A stretch of 64,000 nucleotides of DNA from Planctomycetota bacterium (GTDB taxonomy: Bacteria > Planctomycetota > UBA1135 > UBA2386). The position numbers and the translations under genes are program-made. Below are positions 26,016 through 38,264 of the stretch, piece after piece; position 1 is the first letter of the stretch; each line of letters opens with the position of its first letter. The notes under the pieces were generated by a model, which saw only the letters and a program-made list of their open reading frames with translations, had not been told where the DNA came from and made no database searches. The stretch covers positions 62,001-126,000 of the forward strand of contig JAEUHQ010000124.1 in NCBI GenBank assembly GCA_016794565.1. The letters are read 5' to 3'.

Positions 26016-27278
26016 ATGCTGCGCGCCGTGCTCTCGTGGTCGTGGATCGTGACCTCGCTGCTCGCGCAGCAGGTCGCGGAGGGCCCTGAACCGAACCAGA
26101 CACCCGCGACCGCCACCGTGCTCGCGTGCGGGCGCGAAGGCGTCGGTTCGATCTCCACGTCGCTCGACGTCGACTGGTGGAAGATCACCGTCGTGGCGGG
26201 GAGCGAGATCCTCGTCGAGACCATGCCGGGCGCCGGCACACAGATCGGCGACACCGTCGTGACGTTGTTCGACTCGAGCGGCGCGCCGCTCCGCACGAAC
26301 GACGACGGTGTCGGTTGCGGCCGCTACTCGCGGCTGCGCCTCGCCGACCTCGCCGCGGGCACGTACTACCTCGCCGTCGAGCGAGGGGCGTTCGCCGCGC
26401 TGTCCGGGAGCTACGTACTCGACGTGCGTTGCGCCGTCCCGGCGACGCTCGGTGCGCCGCTGATCGTGAACGAGGGCGCCGAGAACAACGACCCGCGCTC
26501 CGGTGGCACACCGACCACGATCGTGCCCGACGTGCGCGTCAACGGGCTCCTGTCGTCGACGGGCAGCACGGGCGATCACGACTTCTACCGCTTCACCCTG
26601 GCGCAGGCATCGTTCGTCCGCGCGAGCGTCGCGGCGACCGCGTCGCATCCGACGCCGCCCGTGGCCGACGACCTCGTGCTGGCTCTGTACGACAACACGG
26701 TCCCGCCCGCTGTGCTCGCGTCGTCCTTCACGGGAAATGGCTTCGGCGCCTTCGACGCGTCGATCGGCATCTGGCTCGCGCCGGGCACCTACCAGGTCGC
26801 GGTGCGCGGATGGCGCGGCAGCATCGCCGGTCGCTACTACCTGGACGTGCGGACGACGGTCGGCGCGACCGCCTCGGCGAACGCGAACGGTTGCGCCGGG
26901 CGCGCTCTCGACGTCGCACGGACGAACAGCGGCCCCGGCGCGCCACTCGGCCTCGAACGCCCGGTACTGGGCCGTACCTACGCGTTGCAGGGCAGCGGGC
27001 TCGGCGGCTCGTCGATCGGAATCCACCTGTTCGGCGTGACGCCGGCGTCGCTCGACCTCGGGCCGTTCGGGGCAGCGGGTTGCACGCTCGCGCTGTCGTG
27101 GATCGACCTGCTGGCGTTCATCACGGACGCTGCGGGCAATGCCGCGGTCGTGTTGGCGCTCGGCGAGGATCCTTCGCTGCTCGGCGTGCCGCTCGAGACG
27201 CAGGTCGCGATGCTCGACGGTTCGAATGCGCTGGGCATGACGTTCAGCAACAGCGTTTCCGCGGTCATCGGGAACTGA
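26016..27278 (+). CDS. Secreted protein with two PPC-type domains and shared C-terminal module
   Basis: 420 residues with a short signal peptide (RAVLSWSWIVTSLLAQQ). Two bacterial pre-peptidase C-terminal (PPC)-like domains follow. The first shows DVDWWKITVVAGSEILVET, TLFDSSGAPL and LAAGTYYLAVER. The second shows GDHDFYRFTLAQASFVRAS, DDLVLALYDN and LAPGTYQVAVRG. PPC domains are beta-sandwiches found on secreted proteins and proteases, but no protease domain is present. The last ~110 residues (DLGPFGAAGCTLALSWIDLL, then LETQVAMLDGSNALG) are the GC-module seen in other secreted proteins here. The 3' end overlaps the convergent histidine kinase gene by 14 bp. Function unknown; probably cell-surface. 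Confidence 0.8.
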   Translation: MLRAVLSWSWIVTSLLAQQVAEGPEPNQTPATATVLACGREGVGSISTSLDVDWWKITVVAGSEILVETMPGAGTQIGDTVVTLFDSSGAPLRTNDDGVGCGRYSRLRLADLAAGTYYLAVERGAFAALSGSYVLDVRCAVPATLGAPLIVNEGAENNDPRSGGTPTTIVPDVRVNGLLSSTGSTGDHDFYRFTLAQASFVRASVAATASHPTPPVADDLVLALYDNTVPPAVLASSFTGNGFGAFDASIGIWLAPGTYQVAVRGWRGSIAGRYYLDVRTTVGATASANANGCAGRALDVARTNSGPGAPLGLERPVLGRTYALQGSGLGGSSIGIHLFGVTPASLDLGPFGAAGCTLALSWIDLLAFITDAAGNAAVVLALGEDPSLLGVPLETQVAMLDGSNALGMTFSNSVSAVIGN

Positions 27279-36866: not shown

Positions 36867-38264
36867 TCAGCCTGCCGCATCGGGCTTCGGCTCGTCGCCC
36901 GCGCCCTCGGTCGCGGCGTTGAGACGGTTGTAGAGCGTCTTCAGCGCGATCCCGAGCGCCTGGGCCGCCTTGGTCTTGTTGCCGTCGAATCGCTGCAGCG
37001 CGGCGGCGATCGCGAGACGTTCGAGTTCGGCCAGCTCGAGCGTGGGCAGCGTGCCGATCGACGTCGTCGCGCGTTTGCCGGCGAAGACGTGTTCGTCGAC
37101 GTCCGCCGCGGTCACGACGGGTCCGTCGGCGAGCACACCGAGCCGCACGACCGCGTTCTCGAGTTCGCGCACGTTGCCGGGCCAGCGGTGCTGTCGAAGG
37201 CGCGAGACCGCCGTCTCGTCGAACGTCAGGTTCCGGCCCGAACGGGCGGCCTCGCGGGCGAGCAGCGCGCGCGCGAGCGCGGCCACGTCTTCGGGCCGAT
37301 CGCGCAGCGGAGGCACATGGACCTCGAGCACCGCGAGGCGGTAGTAGAGATCCTCGCGGAACACACCGCTGTCCACTCGAGCACGCAAGTCGCGGTTGGT
37401 CGCGGCGACGATGCGCACGTCGACACGCTTCGTGGTGTCGCTGCCGACGGGGCGGATCTCGCCGAACTGCACGGCGCGCAGCAACGCCGGCTGCACGTCG
37501 GGCGGCAGTTCGCCGACCTCGTCGAGGAAGATGGTTCCGCCGTGCGCTGCGTCGAAGAGACCCGGTCGCTTCTGGTCGGCCCCGGTGAACGCACCCTTCA
37601 CGTGGCCGAACAGTTCGCTCTCGACGAGCTGGCGCGGCACGGCGCCGCAGTGGAGCACGACGAACGGCTGGGCGTGGCGAGCGGACAGCGCATGCAGTCG
37701 TCGCGCGACCAGTTCTTTCCCGGTGCCGCTCTCGCCGGTGACCAGCACACTCTGCTCGGCCGACGCGAGGCGCGCGACGAGCTGGTCGAGGCGGCGGCCG
37801 GCCTCGCTCTCGGGGGGGACCGCGACGGTCGCCGTCGCCGCGAGCGCCGCCGCTCGGCGCAGGCGCTGGTTGTCGCGCAGGAGCGCGGCGTGGTTCACGG
37901 CGCGCCGGATGGTCTGCTCCAGGACGTCGAGCGCGATCGGCTTCGTCAGGAAGTCGAAGGCGCCGCGTCGCATCGCTTCCACGGCGACTCCGACCGTGCC
38001 GTGTCCGGTGCACACGACGACCGGAAGGTCCGGATCGTGCTGCTGGAGCGCGCCGAGCACGTCGATGCCGGGAGCGCCGGGCAGGTGCAGGTCGAGGAGC
38101 ACGACGTCGGGCTCGTGGCGGCGCACGGCCTCGACGACCTGGGTGCCGGTGGCGTGGGTCGCGACGTCGAACCGCGCACGCCGAAGTTCGCTGGCGAGGA
38201 CCGTGCGCAGACTCTCGTCGTCTTCGACGAGCAACACGCGCGGGTTGGGCGGCGCCGCCGTCAT
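36867..38264 (-). CDS. Sigma54-dependent response regulator (NtrC family)
   Basis: 465 residues. Receiver domain (1-125): VLLVEDDESLR, phospho-acceptor Asp58 in VVLLDLHLPG, VVCTGHG, and Lys in LTKPI. The AAA+ domain has GESGTGKE (Walker A), the sigma54-contacting GAFTGA loop in HVKGAFTGADQKRPG, GGTIFLDEVGEL (Walker B), and RWPGNVRELENAV. A Fis-type HTH closes it: NKTKAAQALGIALKTLYNRL. It activates sigma54 promoters after phosphorylation. The gene follows the ThuA/DUF1080 gene with a 4-bp overlap and converges on the PKS gene. The histidine kinase at 27265-28782 is the likely partner, and a sigma54-like promoter precedes the PKS-side operon. Confidence 0.95.
   Translation of the reverse strand: MTAAPPNPRVLLVEDDESLRTVLASELRRARFDVATHATGTQVVEAVRRHEPDVVLLDLHLPGAPGIDVLGALQQHDPDLPVVVCTGHGTVGVAVEAMRRGAFDFLTKPIALDVLEQTIRRAVNHAALLRDNQRLRRAAALAATATVAVPPESEAGRRLDQLVARLASAEQSVLVTGESGTGKELVARRLHALSARHAQPFVVLHCGAVPRQLVESELFGHVKGAFTGADQKRPGLFDAAHGGTIFLDEVGELPPDVQPALLRAVQFGEIRPVGSDTTKRVDVRIVAATNRDLRARVDSGVFREDLYYRLAVLEVHVPPLRDRPEDVAALARALLAREAARSGRNLTFDETAVSRLRQHRWPGNVRELENAVVRLGVLADGPVVTAADVDEHVFAGKRATTSIGTLPTLELAELERLAIAAALQRFDGNKTKAAQALGIALKTLYNRLNAATEGAGDEPKPDAAG

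What the first reader, a model, noticed from the sequence alone, without database searches (positions are those of the whole stretch)
27265..38264. Divergent phenolic-lipid locus bracketed by a histidine kinase and a sigma54 regulator
The locus holds a type III PKS, an ICMT-like methyltransferase, a UbiG-like methyltransferase, a flavoprotein, an MMPL exporter, two YceI lipid-binding proteins and a lipoprotein, almost all with overlapping starts and stops. PKS, ICMT-like and flavoprotein genes correspond to srsA/srsB/srsC of Streptomyces (established for alkylresorcinol-derived lipids). New here are the export, carrier and acceptor genes and a kinase/regulator pair at the two ends. The inference is a regulated system that makes a methylated phenolic or quinone-like lipid, passes it through anchored YceI carriers and exports it.
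Basis: partly seen in the sequence, partly recalled or inferred. Interest (0 to 1): 0.78.

Follow-up and report, generated by a model that had tools for sequence, protein, structure and literature searches.

The report
Sigma-54-switched phenolic-lipid making-and-export locus
A planctomycete gene cluster that appears to make a waxy phenol lipid and hand it out through the cell envelope, switched on by its own sensor-regulator pair; half of it was already published, while the export half and its shared two-way control switch look new.

Summary
The locus is real: ten genes at 27265-38264, six of seven same-strand neighbours overlapping. It is not chance: in 33 loci of the class with an orthologous PKS and at least 9 kb upstream, YceI (30), kinase (30), regulator (29), lipoprotein (29), flavoprotein (28) and MMPL pump (27) recur. 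The PKS-side half matches the published "Saltatorellus ferox" operon, whose PKS makes alkylresorcinols. New evidence: both divergent operons carry -24/-12 (sigma-54) promoters around a dyad; PKS-side sites of at least 9/11 occur in 31 of 37 regions against 1.7 in shuffles. Kinase and regulator are adjacent in 24 of 31 loci, so the two ends are a split pair. Two genomes without either orthologue lack one or both promoters. The small lipoprotein models as a lipocalin. Correction: the "ICMT-like" gene is not an SrsB relative (nearest MddA). Best reading: a dedicated sigma-54-controlled system that makes a hydroxylated, methylated phenolic lipid and passes it by an RND pump to envelope-anchored lipocalin-fold carriers. 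Product and function are inferred; antioxidant or redox service of the envelope is the most interesting candidate.

The parts
27265..28782 (-). Sensor histidine kinase (HAMP, HisKA, HATPase_c; AtoS/ZraS-like); periplasmic sensor segment between two TM helices (read by eye)
   Evidence: Pfam over cut-offs; orthologues adjacent to the NtrC gene in 24 loci
28766..29443 (-). Second YceI-like protein with N-terminal membrane anchor and Pro-rich linker (by eye); accessory, its place is empty in 12 of 22 order-level loci measured
   Evidence: hhalign to YceI1 prob 94.8; Pfam YceI E 0.018, below cut-off
29440..30660 (-). FAD-dependent monooxygenase of the SrsC-like kind
   Evidence: FAD_binding_3 104.5 bits; shares CGE / EVH / GDA..TGEG blocks with flavoproteins next to type III PKS in Actinobacteria and Acidobacteria and lacks the halogenase GWxWxIP block (motif recalled)
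30650..32614 (-). MMPL/RND lipid transporter, 654 aa from ATG at 32614
   Evidence: PDB sequence match HpnN 5khn E 1.2e-19; model pLDDT 89.5, Foldseek best MmpL4/5/3, then NPC1-type and HpnN
32627..32642 (-). Predicted sigma-54 promoter of the MMPL-flavoprotein-YceI2-kinase operon, 28 nt before the ATG (weak in the window, 7/11)
   Evidence: 23 of 30 loci with a scored site (window included) have it 25-32 nt before a start codon
32689..32719 (.). Predicted activator site: two dyads GCAC-N3-CTGC (32689-32699) and GCAA-GAG-TTGC (32709-32719), 20 bp apart
   Evidence: GYAAGAGTTRC occurs once in the 5.07 Mb assembly, here (the control pattern also once)
32776..32791 (+). Predicted sigma-54 promoter of the YceI-lipoprotein-methyltransferases-PKS operon, 26 nt before the ATG at 32802 (near-leaderless)
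   Evidence: only site scoring 10/11 or more in the 64 kb window (0.8 expected, so not significant alone); 9/11 or more in 31 of 37 regions
32802..33923 (+). YceI lipid-binding protein with N-terminal membrane anchor and long helical and Pro/Ala-rich linker (by eye)
   Evidence: YceI 69.0 bits; PDB YceI relatives (1wub, 1y0g, 5w37) by profile
33938..34354 (+). Small lipoprotein (lipobox Cys16 invariant in 24 of 24) with predicted lipocalin-like beta-barrel
   Evidence: alignment A2; AF2 pLDDT 89.5; VIA-align best Z 9.4 to lipocalin-like 4i95/5epq; Foldseek best E only 1e-2
34351..35046 (+). UbiG-like SAM methyltransferase (predicted O-methylation of a hydroxylated ring)
   Evidence: UbiG 114.4 over 102.95 cut-off
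35043..35780 (+). Membrane methyltransferase, MddA-like; not of the Pfam ICMT/SrsB family
35777..36826 (+). Type III PKS (alkylresorcinol synthase type), TTG start, triad C138/H273/N306
   Evidence: closest solved structure Pks11 4jao; one match in the assembly
36867..38264 (-). NtrC-type response regulator (receiver, sigma-54 AAA+ with GAFTGA read by eye, Fis HTH); overlaps the upstream ThuA-domain gene by 4 nt
   Evidence: sigma-54 factor genes present in the genome

Best explanation
A dedicated, sigma-54-controlled phenolic-lipid system. The PKS condenses a long acyl-CoA with three (methyl)malonyl-CoA units to an alkylresorcinol (activity shown in print for an enzyme of the same operon type from 'S. 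ferox'). The flavoprotein hydroxylates the ring and the UbiG-like and MddA-like enzymes methylate it, giving a methoxylated phenol or hydroquinone lipid (inferred). The MMPL/RND pump takes the lipid out of the inner membrane; two membrane-anchored YceI proteins and a lipocalin-like lipoprotein, all predicted lipid-binding barrels, hold or ferry it across the periplasm (inferred). The kinase senses an envelope signal and phosphorylates the NtrC-type regulator, which binds the tandem dyad and opens both divergent near-leaderless operons through sigma-54 RNA polymerase (promoters and pairing supported by conservation; binding and phosphotransfer inferred).
For: Conserved set in 33 well-covered loci; one sigma-54-type promoter per operon (31 of 37 at 9/11 or more on the PKS side; 25 of 37 with that plus 8/11 or more on the other side; shuffle means 1.7 and 0.5); start codon 27 or 28 nt from the -26 base in 24 of 31 loci; kinase and regulator adjacent in 24 of 31 loci with both; two genomes without either orthologue lack one or both sites; sigma-54 genes present; lipocalin-like model; pump nearest HpnN/MmpL/NPC1; PKS product known from S. 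ferox (PMC10896814); YceI within 3.5 kb of the PKS in 15 of 68 loci not titled planctomycete.
Against: No product or transport is shown. The UbiG-like gene is missing in 9 and the MddA-like in 7 of 33 loci, so the final lipid varies. The MMPL is missing in L052, L053 and L190, so the pump is not essential to the set. L039, L056 and L180 among the 33, and L060 and L182 outside them, hold the PKS without the set. Five loci that do have the kinase (L055, L184, L186, L189, L191) score under 9/11 on the YceI side (L189's region was cut to 150 nt). The promoter on the MMPL side is weak in the window itself (7/11). In S. maiorica, which has another PKS operon type, a PKS mutant had no growth or ampicillin phenotype (PMC10896814).
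Confidence: 0.7

Rival explanations
1. Same enzymes, but the lipid is a bulk membrane component (as alkylresorcinols of Azotobacter cysts, recalled): the MMPL and YceI proteins place it in the outer leaflet or outer membrane, and no redox role exists.
For: MMPL relatives HpnN and MmpL3 are named as hopanoid and mycolic-acid transporters; both methyltransferases are missing in some loci.
Against: Up to three separate lipid-binding barrel proteins beside one lipid suggest handling of a ligand, and solved YceI barrels typically hold prenyl phenols or quinones (PMC9113575 passages).
Confidence: 0.3
2. The lipid is a secreted mediator or antimicrobial, like the hierridin-type products of picocyanobacteria; the pump and carriers export it out of the cell.
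For: RND pumps occur in cyanobacterial type III PKS clusters and were taken to imply an extracellular role (PMC8086630 passages).
Against: The carriers look membrane-anchored; no antimicrobial effect of the core alkylresorcinols was seen (PMC10896814); none of the ten locus genes is an outer-membrane channel.
Confidence: 0.15
3. The kinase/regulator pair only happens to lie here and controls other genes; the -24/-12 sites are read by another sigma-54 activator.
For: The assembly has other NtrC paralogues; in the window the regulator gene overlaps the ThuA-domain gene and may sit in its transcription unit; the dyad motif was defined on the same regions; the promoter on the YceI side persists in L032, whose genome G003 lacks both orthologues.
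Against: Kinase and regulator stay with the locus in seven families by the family codes (loci); in G063, which has neither, both sites score only 6/11, and in G003 the MMPL-side site is gone.
Confidence: 0.1
4. Two independent units (divergent neighbours): PKS operon for a resorcinol lipid, and an MMPL/flavoprotein/kinase operon for another lipid, side by side by chance.
For: They are separate transcription units; the PKS operon alone was described as the unit in S. ferox (PMC10896814).
Against: MMPL in 27 and flavoprotein in 28 of 33 loci, drawn divergent from the PKS operon in the map, with a shared promoter region.
Confidence: 0.07

Closest known systems
'Saltatorellus ferox' Poly30 type III PKS operon (Milke et al. 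2024, PMC10896814)
   Same: Five genes in the same order: lipid/isoprenoid-binding protein, lipoprotein, methyltransferase, methyltransferase, PKS; PKS makes pentadecyl/heptadecyl(-methyl)resorcinols in C. glutamicum
   Different: The divergent MMPL-flavoprotein-(YceI)-kinase half, the NtrC regulator, sigma-54 promoters and dyad are not mentioned in the main text by the words searched (its Fig. 3 shows unnamed grey genes and was not seen); methyltransferase products unknown there
srsABC of Streptomyces griseus (SrsB = ICMT, SrsC = monooxygenase; PMC6669644 passages)
   Same: Type III PKS and an SrsC-like flavoprotein; PKS 50-53% identical to PKS at actinobacterial loci of PKS-(ICMT)-FAD layout (ICMT checked at L130 only)
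   Different: No SrsB/ICMT relative here; instead UbiG-like and MddA-like methyltransferases; the carrier, pump and lipoprotein profiles do not hit at those loci
hidABC (hierridin) and the planctomycetal three-gene operon
   Same: Methyltransferase + oxidoreductase + type III PKS logic
   Different: Different gene order and, per PMC10896814 section 13, a PKS branch apart from the S. ferox type; no carriers or dedicated regulator seen in the passages read
BcnA/LcoA YceI-lipocalin lipid-peroxidation defence (PMC9113575, passages)
   Same: Periplasmic YceI lipocalins; ligand in most solved YceI barrels is an octaprenyl compound or ubiquinone-8
   Different: No cytochrome b561 among the ten genes here; the locus would make its own phenolic ligand by a polyketide route
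HpnN / MmpL lipid RND transporters
   Same: Sequence and fold of the pump
   Different: Shorter (654 aa); substrate unknown
NtrBC/AtoSC-type kinase + sigma-54 activator pairs
   Same: Domain make-up, -24/-12 promoters, paired dyads (pairing of dyads recalled from NtrC)
   Different: Local pair beside two divergent near-leaderless operons

Membership tests
Alkylresorcinol-type III PKS (SrsA/S. ferox type) | Thiolase-fold PKS with Cys-His-Asn triad and specific relationship to known enzymes | tested here: met
   Pfam Chal_sti_synt N and C over cut-off; C138/H273/N306 invariant in 14 of 14; tree places it in a planctomycete clade. S. ferox and SrsA sequences themselves not compared
Alkylresorcinol-type III PKS (SrsA/S. 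ferox type) | Makes 5-alkylresorcinol from long acyl-CoA | not testable with these tools
   shown in print for the S. ferox enzyme (PMC10896814)
srsABC cluster | SrsB = Pfam ICMT methyltransferase | tested here: not met
   no PF04140 at E<=1 while the L130 protein in the SrsB position scores 111.4 bits; hhalign prob 0.4
srsABC cluster | SrsC-like flavoprotein hydroxylase | tested here: met
   family level only: profile hits of roughly 75-180 bits to PKS-linked flavoproteins of other phyla, shared motif blocks; SrsC itself not compared, activity untested
S. ferox pentacistronic operon | Order lipid-binding protein, lipoprotein, MT, MT, PKS | tested here: met
   against PMC10896814 section 12; sequence identity to Poly30 not measured
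YceI lipocalins | YceI domain over Pfam cut-off | tested here: met
   32802-33923: 69.0 vs 23.7 bits
YceI lipocalins (28766-29443) | YceI domain over Pfam cut-off | tested here: inconclusive
   15.9 bits, below cut-off; profile-profile prob 94.8
Lipocalin fold (33938-34354) | Up-and-down beta-barrel matching lipocalins | tested here: met
   model pLDDT 89.5; lipocalins and lipocalin-like proteins make up most listed rows, VIA Z up to 9.4 (modest); Foldseek E 1e-2 or worse: fold only, not sequence family
MMPL/RND lipid transporters | MMPL domain and RND fold | tested here: met
   MMPL 25.4 over 20.5 bits; TMq 0.79 to MmpL4
NtrC-type sigma-54 response regulator | Receiver + sigma-54 AAA+ + Fis HTH | tested here: met
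   all three over cut-off
Sigma-54-dependent transcription of both operons | -24/-12 promoter beyond chance, conserved | tested here: met
   31 and 16 of 37 at 9/11 or more (PKS side, MMPL side), shuffle means 1.7 and 1.4; transcription itself untested

The most novel reading that the evidence does not exclude
A self-contained envelope redox system: the cell makes, by a polyketide route, a quinol-like lipid (methoxylated, possibly ring-methylated alkylhydroquinone resembling an early ubiquinone head group), loads it by a dedicated RND pump onto tethered YceI barrels and a lipocalin lipoprotein, and uses it across the wide planctomycete periplasm as a chain-breaking antioxidant or electron shuttle, switched on by an envelope-sensing kinase through sigma-54. 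It would be a polyketide counterpart of ubiquinone-loaded YceI/BcnA, and the YceI-PKS pairing at acidobacterial loci would be a second, simpler form.
Probability: 0.3. Interest if true: 0.78.

Novelty: new variant of a known kind. Interest (0 to 1): 0.56.

Why it matters
PMC10896814 (sections 12-14 read) leaves open what planctomycetal alkylresorcinols do and what the S. ferox methyltransferases make. The conserved pump, carrier and control genes suggest where the lipid goes (the envelope) and give a handle (a kinase, a regulator, a dyad and two promoters) to switch the pathway on and find its signal and product.

Tried and rejected
Flavoprotein as halogenase: closest solved relatives are halogenases (3e1t, 8zop, CmlS), but the GWxWxIP block (recalled) is absent in window and aligned relatives. 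As geranylgeranyl/menaquinone reductase: TIGR02032 135.6 bits, below the 158.8 cut-off; left aside because PKS-linked flavoproteins of other phyla share its blocks.

ICMT/SrsB identity: rejected. A whole-genome search with the dyad core gave only the locus itself, but the reversed control also gave one hit, so uniqueness is weak evidence.

Weak points of my own counts. The first automatic YceI start choice picked wrong upstream ATGs and found 13 of 26 sites (further loci got no start); replaced by whole-region scans and frame-checked distances. In one search ties between start codons were broken towards 28 nt, which favours the 27-28 peak. In one search the printed start distances are off by one frame for + strand loci and were not used. 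The dyad pattern was read from the same regions on which it was then counted. Gap-ORF picking took kinase frames in several loci; only gap lengths are counted. In one search the NtrC count of 29 includes L180 and L047, whose NtrC genes may be unrelated, and misses L186 and L191, cut at the locus edge; the flavoprotein count of 28 includes a weak match in L183 (143 bits) and misses L188, where tblastn found it on the same contig as L076; the lipoprotein missed in L195 has a fragment match; YceI2 in L038 was dropped by the overlap filter (one search shows it). The 9 kb rule leaves out L182 (8,970 bases upstream), which lacks the set. The co-occurrence Fisher value ignores relatedness. Viral and metagenome collections were not searched.
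Full report
Observation. I re-called genes with a codon model and scanned them against Pfam and NCBIfam. The MMPL gene more likely starts at 32614 than at 32560 (654 aa, open), so the divergent gap is 187 nt. The assembly has one type III PKS match and two sigma-54 factor matches.

Is it more than chance? A PKS search of the class (154 genomes) gave 52 genomes with a match above 480 bits; the next best is 313. Each of the 52 is represented by one locus. In the 33 loci with at least 9 kb upstream of the PKS I found YceI1 30, kinase 30, NtrC 29, lipoprotein 29, flavoprotein 28, MMPL 27, MddA-like methyltransferase 26 and UbiG-like 24; 23 of 33 have all of kinase, NtrC, flavoprotein, MMPL, YceI1 and lipoprotein. 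L039 and L056 have none, L180 only an NtrC match; outside the 33, L060 and L182 also lack the set. Small miscounts known to me are listed under Tried and rejected. The lipoprotein, which has no family model over cut-off, was sought on its own in the same 154 genomes: 50 have a match, 43 of them together with the PKS, 9 genomes have the PKS only and 7 the lipoprotein only (relatedness not corrected; three of the 50 matches are weak or partial). Of the nine, G011, G031, G033 and G065 have the PKS at a contig end. In a FastTree of 90 PKS sequences the planctomycete clade has support 0.992 (n=53), and members without the set are nested in it, as expected of secondary loss.

What was known. PMC10896814 (abstract, sections 12, 13 and 14 and passages read) describes in 'S. 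ferox' a five-gene operon of lipid/isoprenoid-binding protein, lipoprotein, two methyltransferases and PKS. That is the plus-strand half here. Its PKS made pentadecyl- and heptadecylresorcinols and ring-methylated forms in C. glutamicum; with the two methyltransferases added the same six compounds are listed, and their role was left open. The main text has no occurrence of MMPL, YceI, flavin or regulator. A 2025 review (PMC12078418, passages) still calls the function unclear. Searches for type III polyketide synthase + YceI, YceI + alkylresorcinol, alkylresorcinol + MMPL and type III polyketide synthase + sigma-54 + histidine kinase gave 0, 0, 2 and 1 papers; the three are on Mycobacterium avium paratuberculosis genomes and a Clostridium genome and were seen in the listing only. 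A search with lipocalin and Planctomycetes (15 of 50 rows seen) showed one paper with all three terms, a plant-stress review.

Control region. The single best -24/-12 match in the 64 kb window (10 of 11 consensus positions; 0.8 expected by shuffling) lies at 32776-32791, 26 nt before the YceI1 start. Of 37 divergent regions, 31 hold a site of 9/11 or more towards YceI1, 16 towards the MMPL side, and 25 hold 9/11 or more on the first with 8/11 or more on the second. Dinucleotide shuffles gave means 1.7, 1.4 and 0.5 with maxima 5, 6 and 2 in 200; reversed sequences gave 2, 4 and 2. Upstream regions of kinase, NtrC, ThuA, S13 and PKS genes in the same loci reached 9/11 in 4 of 101 rows (counted by me; the six PPC rows dropped because five gave positions out of range). 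The -26 base lies 27 or 28 nt before the YceI1 start in 24 of 31 loci, and 27-29 nt before the MMPL start in 17 of 30, so both messages should be nearly leaderless. Between the promoters lie dyads; in the window two, 20 bp apart (32689-32699, 32709-32719). Seven of 19 regions have such a pair, each at 20 bp. A stricter dyad occurs in 21 of 37 regions against 3.4 in 300 mononucleotide shuffles, maximum 8. One relative (L194) has perfect 11/11 promoters on both sides.

Kinase and regulator. Of 31 loci where both pass the score limits, 24 have them adjacent on one strand, 5-61 nt apart, on the flavoprotein side; in the window and five near relatives (L033, L034, L036, L038, L046) they lie about 8 kb apart on either side of the PKS; L047 has an unlike NtrC gene. 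So the ends are a pair split by rearrangement, and the window's regulator gene now overlaps the ThuA-domain gene. Two genomes show no orthologue of either (G003: best NtrC 47%, the paralogue level also seen in the window's own genome, and only a kinase-core match; G063: best NtrC 41%, no kinase match at E 1e-40; both are incomplete drafts, and G063's contig ends before the kinase position). In L073 (G063) both sides score 6/11; in L032 (G003) the YceI1 side keeps 9/11 while no core-bearing site was found upstream of the MMPL gene. This fits a shared fate but is two cases, and five loci that do have the kinase (L055, L184, L186, L189, L191) also score under 9 on the YceI1 side.

Parts. The PKS has the Cys-His-Asn triad, invariant in 14 of 14 sequences, and its nearest solved structure is Pks11. 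The flavoprotein shares motif blocks with PKS-linked flavoproteins of Actinobacteria and Acidobacteria. The UbiG-like enzyme passes the UbiG cut-off. The membrane methyltransferase is not an ICMT/SrsB relative at family level. The pump is RND, nearest HpnN by sequence and MmpL4/5/3, NPC1-type and HpnN by fold. YceI1 is an anchored YceI barrel after a long linker. YceI2 is a diverged YceI; between flavoprotein and kinase genes, 10 of 22 order-level loci measured leave a 630-730 nt gap that could hold it and 12 leave none. The lipoprotein models as a lipocalin; Foldseek E-values are weak, but lipocalins and lipocalin-like proteins fill most listed rows.

Beyond the phylum. Among 68 fetched loci not titled as planctomycete (of the nearest 80), 42 have the flavoprotein downstream of the PKS and 15 a YceI gene on the same strand within 3.5 kb; 13 of the 15 carry acidobacterial titles, including the isolate Paracidobacterium acidisoli (L096). 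Only the L113 YceI was checked against Pfam (92.5 bits). None has a lipoprotein match; one (L070) has an MMPL match. This separate pairing supports YceI as a carrier of type III PKS lipids.

Mechanism. Shown by comparison: gene set, pairing, promoters. Shown in print for a relative: the PKS product. Inferred: hydroxylation, methylations, export, carriage, activation by the regulator, and any redox role. Most solved YceI barrels hold octaprenyl compounds or ubiquinone-8, and one YceI system protects envelopes from lipid peroxyl radicals (PMC9113575, passages); with alkyl phenols known as antioxidants (recalled), an envelope antioxidant or redox role is the most interesting reading, at about 0.3. 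Verdict: a real, conserved, new variant of a known kind; interest 0.56.

Noticed in passing
L083, L087, L092, L094, L096, L098, L107, L108, L109, L113, L117, L119, L129, L132, L138: YceI gene beside a type III PKS at loci titled mostly Acidobacteria (13 of 15), in the order PKS-flavoprotein-YceI in 12 of 15.
   Followed up: partly
L196 (G102): YceI1 and the lipocalin-like lipoprotein sit beside a type III PKS of a different clade (312 bits), followed by another flavoprotein: the carrier pair can change its PKS partner.
   Followed up: no
L198, L199, L200: YceI1 and lipoprotein (L198 also with MMPL, kinase, NtrC and membrane methyltransferase) without an orthologous PKS in the stretch fetched.
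   Followed up: no
window 49807-59197: 1934-aa protein with two UvrA interaction and two UvrA DNA-binding domains (tandem-fused UvrA), overlapping by 4 nt an XPB-like helicase gene, which in turn overlaps a gene with a Helicase_C_3 match.
   Followed up: no
window 13180-15138 and 15369-17333: Two neighbouring large proteins (652 and 654 aa) without a Pfam match at E 0.001, next to sugar-nucleotide genes.
   Followed up: no
window 36867-39682: The NtrC gene overlaps by 4 nt a ThuA/3-keto-disaccharide hydrolase gene upstream of it, so its expression may have been captured by that unit after the rearrangement.
   Followed up: partly
L178 (G069): One in-frame TAG inside the PKS match.
   Followed up: no
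L066, L067, L087: MAG titles (Kuenenia, Singulisphaera, Gammaproteobacteria) that sit oddly with their neighbours in sequence; the L087 PKS is nearly identical to acidobacterial L094.
   Followed up: no
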